From Pseudobdellovibrionaceae bacterium (GTDB taxonomy: Bacteria; Bdellovibrionota; Bdellovibrionia; Bdellovibrionales; UBA1609): 64,000 nucleotides of DNA. Below, piece after piece: positions 44,430 through 53,497 of this stretch (the first letter of the stretch is position 1; every line of letters starts with the position of its first letter). The stretch lies in NCBI GenBank assembly GCA_023954155.1, contig JAMLIO010000005.1:62001-126000 (forward strand), written 5' to 3'. The notes under the pieces were generated by a model. It saw only the letters and a list, made by a program, of their open reading frames with translations. It did not search any database and had not been told where the DNA came from. Both the position numbers and the translations under genes were made by a program.

Positions 44430-44912
44430 ATGAAAAATTTAATCTATTTATTGTTATTTCTTTTGCCTGCGCAGGCGTACGCTAAGAACTGCTTTATAGC
44501 TGCGGGAACGTATTTAATGATTGAAGGCGCTGGGGCCAATGCGATCATTGATATTGATCATCCTTTTGAGGACTGTGAGGGCGAAACTCTAAGATTTCGT
44601 TACGGCGCACTTAGGGGTGGGGATCACATCAATTATGTGATTGATATTCAGGCTGAGATTGGTCCTGGTTTAAAGACTTATATTGACGAATTTGGGAATG
44701 AATTTAAATACGAACTCCTTTTTCACGAAAGGTCTTTTGAACTCACAGTGATCTCAACATTTGATGGAGTATGTGAAACCAAAGGTGGATTTGGTTATGA
44801 CAGTTACGATAACCCTGTTGATCACAGCACATTCACTTTAAATCTCACCACGACTTGTGAAGACGGCAGAGATGTCGAAGATATGAGTTTTAAACTCTAT
44901 AAGATCTATTAA
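44430..44912 (+). CDS. Secreted protein of unknown function
   Basis: 160 residues with a signal peptide ending at AYAK (residue 19). Cysteines (CFIAA, DCEG, VCET, TCED) suggest two disulfides in a compact beta-rich domain. It contains many Asp/Gly turns. The ATG follows aaggggagaatctat. It is probably monocistronic, with a hairpin after the stop. No family recognised. Confidence 0.6.
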   Translation: MKNLIYLLLFLLPAQAYAKNCFIAAGTYLMIEGAGANAIIDIDHPFEDCEGETLRFRYGALRGGDHINYVIDIQAEIGPGLKTYIDEFGNEFKYELLFHERSFELTVISTFDGVCETKGGFGYDSYDNPVDHSTFTLNLTTTCEDGRDVEDMSFKLYKIY

Positions 44913-45103: not shown

Positions 45104-45631
45104 ATGAAATATATGATCTCTTTTTTAATGCCCTTGTTTTTGAGTCTAAGTGTCGCGCAGGCTCAAGGGTCTAATTTAACCTTAGTTTGTAAGGTGGGCG
45201 ACAAGGACTTTCGGGCCACTTATTCTCTGACCCAAAGTGGGCATGTGTCCCTTGTGGGCCAAGTAAATCAAAGTAAATTTGCTTGCGATTTGCAATTACA
45301 AGAAATCAAAGATGAGCGTAAAGGTCGAGGGATTTCCAAATACAGTGTGCAATCTTTACGTACAGATGCCAAGTGCAACCAGGATTTGTCTTTTGATTTA
45401 AAAAGAGGCTTGCAAGAGCATGTGGATCTGGTGATCTATAAAAACTACGCCGAACTTTATCTATTTGAAGGGTATAGCAAAATCCGTTGTGATTTTTTTG
45501 AATATAACGAAAAGAACCTCCTAGAGGTGTCAAAGGCCGTCAATCAAAGAAAAATAAACTCTTTGACCCCTAAGCGAAAAGCCGTACCTTTAAAAATCAA
45601 GTCCTTACAAAACAAGAAGTCAAAGAGATAA
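45104..45631 (+). CDS. Secreted protein of unknown function, upstream of the PAD homologue
   Basis: 175 residues from ATG 45104, preceded by gaaggattccaaa. The signal peptide ends VAQAQ (residue 22). The mature part has three or four cysteines, a central acidic block and a strongly basic C-terminus (QRKINSLTPKRKAVPLKIKS...). The stop is followed by the PAD-like gene after 4 bases, so the two are co-transcribed. It could be a chaperone, inhibitor or substrate of the deiminase; this is inferred only from position. No family recognised. Confidence 0.6.
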   Translation: MKYMISFLMPLFLSLSVAQAQGSNLTLVCKVGDKDFRATYSLTQSGHVSLVGQVNQSKFACDLQLQEIKDERKGRGISKYSVQSLRTDAKCNQDLSFDLKRGLQEHVDLVIYKNYAELYLFEGYSKIRCDFFEYNEKNLLEVSKAVNQRKINSLTPKRKAVPLKIKSLQNKKSKR

Positions 45632-45635
45632 AAAT

Positions 45636-47096
45636 ATGAAAATTATATTTTCATTAAGTATATTTTTAATATTTATAAATACATCTCTGGCAAATAACTG
45701 TGCGGATCATTCTGCGAGTGACCCTAGTGTTCCCCTGTGTCCCGAGGGAGCAGGAATTTTATCAGAAGTTTATCCAGTCAGGATGGCCACAGTTTCAACT
45801 GAAGTTGATGGCGGTGCTGTGCATGCGGGAAGCTTTGTGAGTCAGCTCTTTGCAAGTCAGCCAGATAAGCCTCCTGCCGTGATCATATCAGGTAAAAATA
45901 CGGACTGTGCGTGGGCAAAACAAATAGTAGCTAGGCGTGCCCCTGCAAGTAAAAGGGCTCTTTGGGTGAGTAATATTCAGTGCAACCCTGAGAGTGAATG
46001 GAATTGGCAACAAGATTTTATGCAAGGTTATGTGAACAGTTCAGGGCAGCCTGTAGTCAGGTTTAATCCTGAGTATTATAATGGGGAAGGTCGTGCGGTT
46101 TATAAAGGTCTTCCTGAGCGAATTCAAAAATGTGGCTTTGAAACAAATGAAGAAGGGAGAGGGGGCACTAATCCATACATGGGAGGAAATATTGAGGGGA
46201 TGCCTCCTGACTTCTGTGTGATTGGGGATAATGTTCCAGAAGCCGAACGCTCCTTTATGTGTAATGGTGCAAAGAATATTATGGTTGCGCCCACAGGTTT
46301 TATGAAAGTGGGACATACAGATGAGATCATGAAGACCGTTCATACAGGCGGTCCACCTCCTTGTAACTTTAAGGTGTTGGTGGGATCAGTAGATTTAGCT
46401 AAAGAGCTTATGGCGGCAGCTCCGCAGGACGAGGATTTTATCCCAACTCCTACAGACATAACCAGTAATGTCTGTGGTTTTGAAACTGAAGCGAATCTTT
46501 CTCCAGGAAGTGGTGGGAGTTCTACTACAACTACTCAAAATTTCTTATTACAGTATTTAATGCCTCAAAGTGCATTTGCAGACTTGCGTGTAGAGGGTCC
46601 AGACGGGAGCCGAGCTCCTTCTCGAGAAGGTAGAGATAGAAGAAGTGGGTCTGAGAGTTCTGAACAGGGATCTAGTGAGCCACTTAAAACTTGTACACCG
46701 CAAAAGTTTTTGCGAAATCTTGAGCGTAGTGAAGAAGGTTCTCGTAACAATGAAATTGGTGCAAAACTTGATAATTTTGCAGAGGGTGTGAAAAAAACCA
46801 TGGGTTCCAAGCTCCCGCAATGTGGAGATGTGGTTGAGCGTGTACCGATGTTGTTTACAGCCAGACAAGATGATGATGCGGTATCTATCTTTCCTAACCC
46901 TACAAACGGGGTGAATATCAATGGGACTATGATCTATTCAGATCCCAACAATAAAATCTTTGACAAGTATTTAACAGATTTGAGTCGAAAAATAGGCGTA
47001 AAGAAAAGAACTGTAAATACAGCAGAGCCTCATAGGTTAAATGGCAATTTGCATTGCTCGACAAACTTATTAAGATACTGTCGCCCTAGAAAATAA
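45636..47096 (+). CDS. Secreted protein-arginine deiminase (PAD) homologue
   Basis: PADs hydrolyse peptidyl-arginine to citrulline using Asp, His, Asp and Cys. In this 486-residue protein all four can be placed from remembered PAD4 sequence: D127 in WNWQQDFMQGY (PAD4 RWIQDEMEIGY), H227 and D229 in VGHTDE (PAD4 VGHVDE) and C474 in GNLHCSTN (PAD4 GEVHCGTN). GGNIEGMPP also matches the PAD GNLEVSPP block, and FPNPTNGVNING resembles PAD FPNMVNM and VING. A signal peptide (ending SLAN, residue 20) predicts export. The two N-terminal Ig-like domains of animal PADs are absent, and a Gly/Ser/Thr-rich plus charged insert (about 286-350) interrupts the domain. Closest relatives cannot be named without a search. 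It is not of the agmatine-deiminase-like Porphyromonas type, judging by these motifs. Confidence 0.8.
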   Translation: MKIIFSLSIFLIFINTSLANNCADHSASDPSVPLCPEGAGILSEVYPVRMATVSTEVDGGAVHAGSFVSQLFASQPDKPPAVIISGKNTDCAWAKQIVARRAPASKRALWVSNIQCNPESEWNWQQDFMQGYVNSSGQPVVRFNPEYYNGEGRAVYKGLPERIQKCGFETNEEGRGGTNPYMGGNIEGMPPDFCVIGDNVPEAERSFMCNGAKNIMVAPTGFMKVGHTDEIMKTVHTGGPPPCNFKVLVGSVDLAKELMAAAPQDEDFIPTPTDITSNVCGFETEANLSPGSGGSSTTTTQNFLLQYLMPQSAFADLRVEGPDGSRAPSREGRDRRSGSESSEQGSSEPLKTCTPQKFLRNLERSEEGSRNNEIGAKLDNFAEGVKKTMGSKLPQCGDVVERVPMLFTARQDDDAVSIFPNPTNGVNINGTMIYSDPNNKIFDKYLTDLSRKIGVKKRTVNTAEPHRLNGNLHCSTNLLRYCRPRK

Positions 47097-47104
47097 TTGA
47101 GGAA

Positions 47105-47180
47105 TGGAGCGGGAGACGGGATTCAAACCCGCGACCTTCGCCTTGGCAAGGCGACGCTCTATCAGCTGAGCTACTCCCGC
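47105..47180 (-). tRNA. tRNA-Gly (GCC anticodon)
   Basis: On the minus strand the acceptor arms GCGGGAG and CTCCCGC pair, followed by a T discriminator and an encoded CCA (47107-47105). The anticodon loop reads TTGCCAA, giving anticodon GCC for glycine. The T arm (GCGGGTTTGAATCCCGT) and D arm are canonical. It is 76 nt including CCA. It lies between the PAD homologue and pgsA. Confidence 0.97.
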
Positions 47181-51060: not shown

Positions 51061-51313
51061 AGTTCTAAAAATATCAGAAATTAGCAGCAAAATATTCTAA
51101 GGCTCACCATTACTGGACCTAAGTATTGGATGAAAAAACAGGCACAATTGCGGCTTTGATTTTAAGAATTTGGCTTGAGGTGAAAGGGGGTGGATTTTTA
51201 AACTGGAATGGGGCCAAATGTGCAAAGAATCAGGGTTTAAACGCATTGTGGACTTGACCTTAAGGGCATCTCTTTTGACACTATAAGTAGTGCCTAGGGG
51301 GGGTAACCTTTTC

Positions 51314-53497
51314 ATGAAACTAATGCTACGGATATCGAAACTCTTGATCCTTTCACTGACGTTAATGCTGCTGTTCTTTCATCAAGCCTTCGCCAACATT
51401 GAAGGTGGACCAACGCAGAACTTTAACCCTGTTTATGGAGGCAGAGACTTTACTACTGTGCACTCCACAAGCACTGTTAAAAAATATCACCTTAACGTCG
51501 GGCTGTTTTTAGACTATTCCATAGAAACTCTTCCTGTTTACCCTACAATCATTAACCCTGATATTGATGACCGCGCTCTTTACTCCACTTTAGGTTTGGG
51601 TTTTGGTCTGACTGACAGATGGGATGTGGGGGTGTCGATCCCTTATATGGCCAATCAATCGGTGGATGATGTTCAGTTGCGTGGACAGTTCAAAACAAAA
51701 GGTATGACTGAAATTCGTTTACTTTCAAAGTACAGACTGATGAACTTTGAAAGCGGTGGGGGTTTAGCGGTTTTAGGTTCTGTGGGACTGAACCAAACTA
51801 AAAATTTACCTTTTGTGGGGGATAGTCCTGATCCAACTTTTAATATTCAAGTTTTAATCGACCATCTTGTAGGGCAGTGGAGACTTGCTGGGAACATTGG
51901 ATACCGTATGGTGTCTCCAGGTCCTCAGATCCCAGGTTTCACTCATTTCCAACCTCTGGGAGATTCCTTTATCATGTCCGCAGCGGCTCGTTATCAGTTT
52001 AATGAAAACTGGTTTGGTTTAGGGGAGCTATGGGCAGCGATGCCAAATGCAGATATGGGAGGCGTGGACCGCGCTGAAAATTCTTATGAGGCCCTTTTAG
52101 GCGGGATTTATAAGCAGGAGTATGAATCCTCTGAAGAGCTCAATGTTCATTTTGGTGTGACCAAAGGGATCAATAAGGGGATTTCGACTCCGACGATCAG
52201 AGGGTATGTGGGTGTGAACTATATGTTTGGTCCACTCTTTGGCGGCTCGGGCCCTGTTGTGAAAAAAGCCGCCACGAAAAAAGTCGCAGAGAAAAAGCCA
52301 CCTAAACCTCTGGCAGAAATTTCAGATGATTTTGGTCAGTCCTTTTATAACGAAGGTTATCGTCAAGGTTATATGGCTGGTTATGGTATTGGTCCCTATG
52401 CGGGCTTGGGTCCTGAAGAGGGACGAACTCATGATGGTGGACAGGATTACCCTGAAGGCTTTTATGATGGCTATATTGATGGCGGAGGTCCACTTCCTGG
52501 GGATCCTAATCGACCGAATTGGGCGAAGTGCTATCGCACGGGCTTCCAAGGTAAGCTTGGCAATGGACCTGGAGCCAACAAAGGGCAAAAATATGGTTCC
52601 CAGTTAAAGCTCGGCAAAGATTGTCCTGATGGTTTTGAAACAGGTTGGTTAGATGCTCCTGACAGTTTTGTAGAGCCGTCTCAGGACGATGAGGCTCAAG
52701 AGTCTTTTTACAACCCTGGTTATCGTGAAGGGTATAAGGCAGGTTATGGCATTGGACCTTATGCCGGCATGGGCCCAGAGCATGGGCAAACTTTAGATGG
52801 TGGTTTTGAATACCCAGAAGGTTTTTATGATGGTTACATTGATGCCGTAGGGCCTTACCCTGGTGATCCTAACCGTCGTATTTACGGAAAGGGCTATCGC
52901 ACAGGCTTCCAAGGTAAGCTTGGTAACGGGCCTGGTAAAGGTAAAGACCAGTACTACGGGTCTCAGCTTAACTCTGACCCTGATTACATCTTGGGCTTTG
53001 AGCACGGATGGATTGATGCTCCTGATACCGCAACACCTGCTCCTGAGGCAGAACCTCAAGATGTGAGTGATGGGTACACGGGATATGAAGCCAACCCGAA
53101 TGCCTTTACCATCAATACAGATGAGGACGTGTTTAAAGACAGAGTTCCAGAAGAAGAGGAAGTGTTAAACATTGAAAACATCAACTTTAACACGGCTTCG
53201 GCATTGATTCTGCCTTCGTCTTATCCCGTGTTGGGCAATGTGGTGAACTACTTAAACAAGTATGAGTTTAAAACTCTAGAGATTTGGGGGCACACAGACA
53301 GTCGCGGTGCCGCTCTCTATAACGAAAGACTCAGTCTTGAGAGAGCGCGTTCGGTCTATCAATATCTGATCGAGCAAGGCATTGACGGCAGCAAGATCAC
53401 TTTTGATGGTTGGGGCGAGAGAAAACCAGTGGTGCCCAACACTACACCAGAGAATTTACGTAAGAACCGTCGAGTGGAGTTCATCATCCGCCGTTAA
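51314..53497 (+). CDS. OmpA-family outer-membrane protein with two 121-residue tandem repeats
   Basis: 727 residues from ATG 51314 (aggggggt upstream). The signal peptide ends at QAFA. An N-terminal barrel (to about residue 310) shows YSTLGLGFGLTDRWDVGVSIPYM-type strands. Next comes a Lys/Pro linker, then two tandem units of 121 residues (52325-52687 and 52688-53050) rich in Gly, Tyr and Asp, each with Y-R-x-G-Y-x-A-G-Y-G-I-G-P-Y-A-G and D-P-N-R...TGFQGKLGNGPG. The C-terminal 120 residues are an OmpA peptidoglycan-binding domain (INFNTASALILPSS, GHTDSRGAALYNERLSLERARSV, NRRVEFIIRR). It joins outer membrane to wall; the repeat module may be exposed or periplasmic. Confidence 0.85.
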   Translation: MKLMLRISKLLILSLTLMLLFFHQAFANIEGGPTQNFNPVYGGRDFTTVHSTSTVKKYHLNVGLFLDYSIETLPVYPTIINPDIDDRALYSTLGLGFGLTDRWDVGVSIPYMANQSVDDVQLRGQFKTKGMTEIRLLSKYRLMNFESGGGLAVLGSVGLNQTKNLPFVGDSPDPTFNIQVLIDHLVGQWRLAGNIGYRMVSPGPQIPGFTHFQPLGDSFIMSAAARYQFNENWFGLGELWAAMPNADMGGVDRAENSYEALLGGIYKQEYESSEELNVHFGVTKGINKGISTPTIRGYVGVNYMFGPLFGGSGPVVKKAATKKVAEKKPPKPLAEISDDFGQSFYNEGYRQGYMAGYGIGPYAGLGPEEGRTHDGGQDYPEGFYDGYIDGGGPLPGDPNRPNWAKCYRTGFQGKLGNGPGANKGQKYGSQLKLGKDCPDGFETGWLDAPDSFVEPSQDDEAQESFYNPGYREGYKAGYGIGPYAGMGPEHGQTLDGGFEYPEGFYDGYIDAVGPYPGDPNRRIYGKGYRTGFQGKLGNGPGKGKDQYYGSQLNSDPDYILGFEHGWIDAPDTATPAPEAEPQDVSDGYTGYEANPNAFTINTDEDVFKDRVPEEEEVLNIENINFNTASALILPSSYPVLGNVVNYLNKYEFKTLEIWGHTDSRGAALYNERLSLERARSVYQYLIEQGIDGSKITFDGWGERKPVVPNTTPENLRKNRRVEFIIRR
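52325..53050 (+). repeat. Two tandem 363-bp (121-codon) repeats inside the OmpA-like gene
   Basis: Unit 1 (about 52325-52687) and unit 2 (52688-53050) are offset by exactly 363 bases and keep nearly the same residues, with most changes at third positions or in the middle segment. They encode the Gly/Tyr-rich modules between the barrel and the OmpA domain. Confidence 0.85.

What the first reader, a model, noticed from the sequence alone, without database searches (positions are those of the whole stretch)
45636..47096. A secreted bacterial homologue of protein-arginine deiminase with an intact catalytic set
Seen: D127, H227, D229 and C474 lie in motifs matching those of vertebrate PAD catalytic residues, in the right order. 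Known: PAD enzymes citrullinate proteins; bacterial PAD_C homologues are reported from cyanobacteria, whereas the Porphyromonas enzyme is of another subfamily. Inference: exported citrullination in a predator-like bacterium could modify proteins of another cell. A 65-residue Ser/Thr-rich and charged insert splits the domain, which I have not seen described. Calcium ligands of animal PADs were not traced.
Basis: partly seen in the sequence, partly recalled or inferred. Interest (0 to 1): 0.85.

Follow-up and report, generated by a model that had tools for sequence, protein, structure and literature searches.

The report
Secreted bacterial citrullinating-type enzyme with partner
A Bdellovibrio-type bacterium carries an exported relative of the animal enzymes that turn protein arginine into citrulline; it belongs to a family found in about a fifth of sampled genomes of its phylum, and in over half of the copies examined it is encoded directly beside a previously unnamed small exported protein that probably controls it.

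Summary
Window 45636-47096 encodes a 486-aa protein with a Sec-type signal peptide and a PAD catalytic domain. Alone it scores below Pfam's cut-off (18.1 of 25 bits), but a profile of it and 36 phylum relatives matches human PAD1-4 (E about 1e-32 to 1e-26), and its AlphaFold model matches PADs first in the PDB. D127, H227, D229 and C474 align with PAD4 D350, H471, D473 and C645.

New here: (1) the family is common in the phylum (63 of 291 genomes) and lacks PAD_N and PAD_M; (2) calcium site 1 is largely kept, site 2 is lost, and PAD4's R372/R374 are not conserved; (3) the insert is a disordered loop, long in partner-bearing PADs, usually with a hydrophobic-AxA motif; (4) a small exported protein (45104-45631, four bases upstream) belongs to an unnamed family found beside PAD genes in 26 of the 27 genomes that have it, usually with a four-base ATGA overlap.

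Best reading: an exported, probably active arginine deiminase made together with a dedicated periplasmic partner (inhibitor, chaperone or activator). Activity, the partner's role and any action on prey are unproven. New variant of a known kind.

The parts
45636..47096 (+). Exported PAD-family (PAD_C only) arginine deiminase homologue, 486 aa
45636..45692 (+). Sec-type signal peptide MKIIFSLSIFLIFINTSLA/NN, no lipobox
   Evidence: Sequence; hydrophobic scan; helix 2-15 in the model. Cleavage site inferred
46005..46025 (+). WQQDFMQ (aa 124-130): W347/Q349/D350/E353 equivalents; catalytic D127; calcium-1 ligand positions Q126 and Q130 (the latter E in most relatives)
46182..46196 (+). GGNIE (aa 183-187): PAD4 F407-E411, calcium-1 ligand loop
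46308..46325 (+). VGHTDE (aa 225-230): H227 and D229 = PAD4 H471 and D473
46434..46685 (+). Ser/Thr-rich and charged disordered loop (about aa 267-350), with a hydrophobic-AxA motif FLLQYLMPQSAFA/D between C280 and C353
   Evidence: pLDDT below 50; loop lengths; motif against shuffles and loop Cys; Cys positions
47052..47066 (+). HCSTN (aa 473-477): nucleophile C474 = PAD4 C645
45104..45631 (+). Small exported partner protein (175 aa from ATG 45104; 180 aa from TTG 45089), all-beta model, cysteines C29, C61, C91, C129, basic C-terminal tail; stop codon 4 nt before the PAD start

Best explanation
The gene encodes an exported, single-domain PAD-type enzyme that, with C474 as nucleophile and D127, H227 and D229 as its helpers, most likely hydrolyses the guanidinium of arginine, probably in peptides or proteins, to citrulline. 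It is made together with, and most likely bound by, a dedicated small all-beta exported protein from the adjacent gene. My preferred role for the partner is to hold the soluble enzyme in check or help it fold in the periplasm until it reaches its target; the long disordered loop, with its hydrophobic-AxA motif, is a candidate docking or cleavage site. Shown: homology, aligned catalytic residues, absence of PAD_M/PAD_N and of calcium site 2, conserved gene pairing. Inferred: activity, substrate, physical binding, the partner's role, and any target outside the cell.
For: The profile matches PAD1-4 at E down to 2.7e-32, against 0.4-0.8 for agmatine deiminase and the Porphyromonas enzyme. Model pLDDT is 83.5, pTM 0.83, and the 50 Foldseek matches listed are PADs apart from one cytoplasmic-lattice entry (a PAD6-containing assembly), best E 9.4e-16. 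D/H/D/C are kept in all complete phylum PADs aligned except L019, and dN is far below dS for PAD and partner in the close relative pairs tested. Of 291 phylum genomes, 63 have PAD and 27 have the partner; 26 of those 27 have PAD, Fisher p 9e-19. The partner search did not use position, yet 9 of 10 genomes that contributed no seed sequence gave the hit beside PAD. Of 27 downstream pairs, 18 share a 4-nt overlap and all lie within 25 nt. The pair is spread across seven or more family codes. By eye, partner-bearing PADs carry soluble-type signal peptides, whereas about 12 of 19 partner-less phylum PADs look lipidated or membrane-anchored.
Against: No activity data. PAD4 R372 and R374 are not at the aligned positions (a conserved R142 may substitute; the alignment there is gappy), so the substrate may not be peptidyl-arginine. 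Calcium site 2 is lost; PAD4 N373A is reported dead (PMC11402830). Many phylum PADs have no detectable partner, so it is not needed for every PAD. The partner has no significant relative in Pfam or the PDB, so its role rests on genomic context. The PAD-partner distance correlation (Mantel r 0.92) is largely what shared ancestry would give.
Confidence: 0.6

Rival explanations
1. Active deiminase whose partner is an obligatory chaperone or activator, replacing the ordering that calcium site 2 gives animal PADs, instead of an inhibitor.
For: Calcium-2 ligands are lost throughout; protein or peptide binding near sites 1/2 is reported to activate PAD4 (PMC11402830); translational coupling and a co-exported small protein also fit a foldase-enzyme pair.
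Against: Partner-less relatives keep the same catalytic set, so a foldase is not a general need; no significant fold match of any kind.
Confidence: 0.3
2. The enzyme acts on a small guanidino compound (free arginine, agmatine, methylarginine) and is a scavenging enzyme, not a protein-modifying one.
For: PAD4 R372/R374, which contact the substrate peptide (general knowledge), are not conserved at the aligned positions; other members of the deiminase fold superfamily act on small molecules (general knowledge).
Against: The profile prefers PADs over agmatine deiminase by some 30 orders of magnitude in E; W124 is invariant; a dedicated exported partner is not expected for a scavenging enzyme.
Confidence: 0.2
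3. The partner is the PAD's dedicated substrate or pseudosubstrate: its basic, often arginine-ending C-terminal tail enters the active site.
For: Basic tails ending in arginine in the window, L001, L005, L006 and the L008/L096/L097/L100 genus; consistent genomic pairing.
Against: Several other partners (e.g. L052, L111, L120, L045, L049) have very short tails or none ending in arginine, so it cannot hold for all pairs.
Confidence: 0.12
4. A decayed or catalytically dead PAD kept as a binding protein.
For: E353 is Q in this sub-clade; a dead-looking relative exists (L019: GMVNE, and QS in place of HC).
Against: All four catalytic residues are present in the window protein and its nearest relatives, dN is well below dS in the close relative pairs tested, and L019 is an exception.
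Confidence: 0.08

Closest known systems
Vertebrate PAD4/PAD2 (protein-arginine deiminase, PF03068, PAD_C)
   Same: Catalytic fold; W347, D350, H471, D473, N588 and C645 equivalents; most of the calcium-1 site (Q349 and E411 kept, E353 is Q)
   Different: No PAD_N or PAD_M; calcium-2 ligands lost; R372/R374 not conserved; exported; long disordered loop; partner gene
Two-domain PADs of actinobacteria, proteobacteria and fungi (Cummings et al. 2021, PMC8826395)
   Same: Non-animal PAD_C; calcium site 2 not conserved, site 1 kept
   Different: Those are reported with a divergent PAD_M; the Streptomyces homologue L062 is a 722-aa open frame with a long N-terminal part; here about 100 aa after the signal peptide precede the W124 motif, and there is a partner gene, which the passages read do not mention
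Porphyromonas peptidylarginine deiminase (PPAD)
   Same: Exported bacterial arginine deiminase of the wider fold superfamily (general knowledge)
   Different: Another subfamily; profile match only E 0.55, over a short N-terminal stretch
Enzyme-inhibitor or enzyme-foldase gene pairs (e.g. staphopain-staphostatin, lipase-foldase; recalled, not tested)
   Same: Exported enzyme gene followed by a closely linked small gene
   Different: No tested sequence relation; the partner has no significant fold match; a periplasmic lysozyme inhibitor, PliC, appears only at rank 48, E 1.2

Membership tests
PAD family (PF03068, PAD_C) | Significant match to the family | tested here: met
   Single sequence below cut-off; profile against PAD4 E 2.7e-32; all 37 aligned members match PF03068
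PAD family (PF03068, PAD_C) | Catalytic D, H, D, C in order and aligned with D350/H471/D473/C645 | tested here: met
PAD family (PF03068, PAD_C) | PAD fold | tested here: met
   AlphaFold model, PAD matches E down to 9.4e-16
PAD family (PF03068, PAD_C) | Four catalytic residues brought together in space | not testable with these tools
PAD family (PF03068, PAD_C) | Peptidyl-arginine deimination | not testable with these tools
   Needs an assay
Animal/cyanobacterial clade-A PAD | PAD_N and PAD_M domains | tested here: not met
   Only PF03068 found in 37 members; about 100 aa after the signal peptide precede the W124 motif
Animal/cyanobacterial clade-A PAD | Calcium-2 ligands E351, D369, N373 | tested here: not met
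   E351 is F128, D369 is F143; N373 aligns with N149 only across gaps
PADs generally | Calcium-1 ligands Q349, E353, E411 | tested here: inconclusive
   Q126 and E187 kept; E353 is Q130 here, E in most relatives
PADs generally | Substrate residues R372 and R374 | tested here: inconclusive
   Not at the aligned positions, but the loop is gappy and R142 is a conserved candidate replacement
PPAD-type deiminase | Sequence match | tested here: not met
   E 0.55 over a short N-terminal stretch

The most novel reading that the evidence does not exclude
A two-component exported citrullination system characteristic of Bdellovibrionota: a soluble PAD modifies proteins of prey or of the bacterium's own envelope, and a dedicated periplasmic protein keeps it inactive, or delivers it, until the loop is bound or cut at the AxA site. 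It would be, as far as I know, the first bacterial PAD with a cognate regulator.
Probability: 0.25. Interest if true: 0.85.

Novelty: new variant of a known kind. Interest (0 to 1): 0.62.

Why it matters
Bacterial PADs are known from sequence, but outside the active cyanobacterial enzyme their roles are open. A phylum in which roughly one sampled genome in five has a PAD, many with a co-encoded exported partner, gives a tractable place to ask what bacteria use citrullination for, and offers a natural protein that may inhibit or activate a PAD lacking the calcium-2 switch. That bears on PAD regulation in general, since protein and peptide regulators of human PADs are of interest.

Tried and rejected
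Single-sequence PDB search: no PAD. Phage search: none. Plasmid search with the relative L032 gave one distant Streptomyces PAD. NCBIfam: nothing for PAD, partner or the neighbouring small ORF. Partner in Pfam and PDB by sequence and fold: only scattered chance-level hits; a lysozyme-inhibitor fold for the partner was considered and not supported (E 1.2). Recent foreign origin: GC of the PAD gene is at the 47th percentile of the window, no sign. Conserved wider operon: neighbours of L001 and L002 differ from the window except for the partner. Using a record of another phylum as search centre was not accepted by the tool, so presence of the partner outside Bdellovibrionota is untested. Papers: no paper found in the library on citrullination or PADs of Bdellovibrio.

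Full report
Observation. The ORF, coordinates and four residues are as reported. Relatives settled it: a genome-contig scan gave two Bdellovibrionales genomes at 38% and 31% identity, a whole-genome search of 59 relatives gave 17 with matches, the window's own included, and PF03068 itself rang in 48 of 291 genomes of the phylum. An alignment of 37 sequences (A1) keeps W124, D127, G184, N185, E230, C243, C396, P404, N424, H466 and G470 invariant and H227, D229, H473 and C474 nearly so. As a profile it hits human PAD4 at 2.7e-32 and PAD1, 3, 2 and 6, with agmatine deiminase and the Porphyromonas enzyme only at 0.4-0.8. The model (pLDDT 83.5, pTM 0.83) matches PADs first, best E 9.4e-16. TM-scores near 0.5 plausibly reflect the disordered loop and the extra PAD domains of the targets. 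I could not measure distances between the catalytic side chains.

Anatomy against PAD4. Kept: W347, Q349, D350, L410 (as I), E411, V469, H471, D473, N588, H644, C645. Calcium site 1 (Q349, E353, E411; PMC11402830) is kept apart from E353, which is Q130 here and in several near relatives, E in most others. Calcium site 2 (E351, D369, N373) is lost, in line with what Cummings et al. report for PADs outside the animal/cyanobacterial clade (PMC8826395). R372 and R374 are not at aligned positions; an arginine (R142) in that loop is conserved in the window's clade and aligned with one in the Streptomyces homologue. There is no PAD_N or PAD_M match; the Streptomyces homologue has a long N-terminal part. 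So the family looks like a stripped, single-domain PAD.

The insert. Residues 274-348 are mostly predicted disordered. In an alignment of 49 PADs the loop is 87-181 aa in the 29 that have the partner gene and 54-119 aa in the 20 that do not (Mann-Whitney p 1e-8, not corrected for ancestry). It holds a hydrophobic stretch followed by AxA and a small, acidic or amide residue in 20 of 29 partner-bearing PADs, against 1.6 expected and at most 7 in 2000 shuffles; two cysteines are present in the loop in 29 of 29. The motif resembles the end of a signal peptide; whether it is cut or bound is unknown.

The partner. The gene ending four bases upstream of the PAD start encodes a small exported protein. 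Iterated profile searches showed it to be homologous to ORFs next to PAD genes in many relatives, with a sharp drop from E 4e-20 to 0.3. A profile of 19 members (A2; invariant C61 and C91) finds one copy in the window's own genome, next to PAD. In 291 phylum genomes it finds 27 genomes; 26 have a PAD, and in all 26 the two genes are neighbours; the exception, G211, is a partial match at E 7e-4. Nine of the ten genomes that contributed no seed sequence also had the hit beside PAD. In most loci the partner follows PAD; in the window and G113 it precedes it. Of 27 downstream cases 18 overlap by 4 nt and all are within 25 nt (one search had an off-by-one on the minus strand, corrected). The partner model is mostly beta (pLDDT 83) with no significant fold or family match. 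Both genes are under purifying selection in close pairs.

Tree. The window protein is sister to L001 (100/99) inside a supported 28-row clade in which 24 carry the partner; a second supported clade of five all carry it. The four partner-less members of the large clade are L009, L014, L055 and L057; three of them have the longest branches there, so their place is unsure, and L009 has lost calcium-1 residues. Outside these clades the sampled PADs lack the partner and many look membrane-anchored or lipidated by simple inspection. This suggests, but does not prove, that the partner goes with soluble, exported PADs.

Mechanism and limits. I commit to an exported arginine deiminase with a co-made periplasmic partner. 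Inhibitor and chaperone/activator are close rivals; translational coupling and strict co-occurrence fit both. The gene pair being kept over several families of the phylum argues for a functional relation. My searches were confined to this phylum, so the partner's wider distribution is unknown, and the co-occurrence statistics ignore shared ancestry.

Noticed in passing
window 44430-44912 (+): Another small exported-looking protein (160 aa) upstream of the pair, no Pfam or NCBIfam match.
   Followed up: no
window 47105-47180 (-): tRNA-Gly (gcc) directly downstream of the PAD gene, on the other strand.
   Followed up: no
L019:1393-2913 (-): A PAD relative with catalytic residues replaced (GMVNE, and QS in place of HC): likely a dead pseudoenzyme.
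   Followed up: partly
L009:826-2361 (-): PAD of the partner-bearing clade with no partner found beside it and with calcium-1 residues lost (WQKD, AGNIG), catalytic four intact.
   Followed up: partly
genome G268: One genome carries five PAD places by the family profile (seven PF03068 matches), an expansion worth study.
   Followed up: no
window 45545-45628: Partner proteins of several lineages have a basic tail ending in arginine, a possible substrate or pseudosubstrate of the neighbouring PAD.
   Followed up: partly
window 51290-53497 (+): OmpA-like exported protein with two similar internal repeats (YREGYKAGYGIGPYAG type).
   Followed up: no
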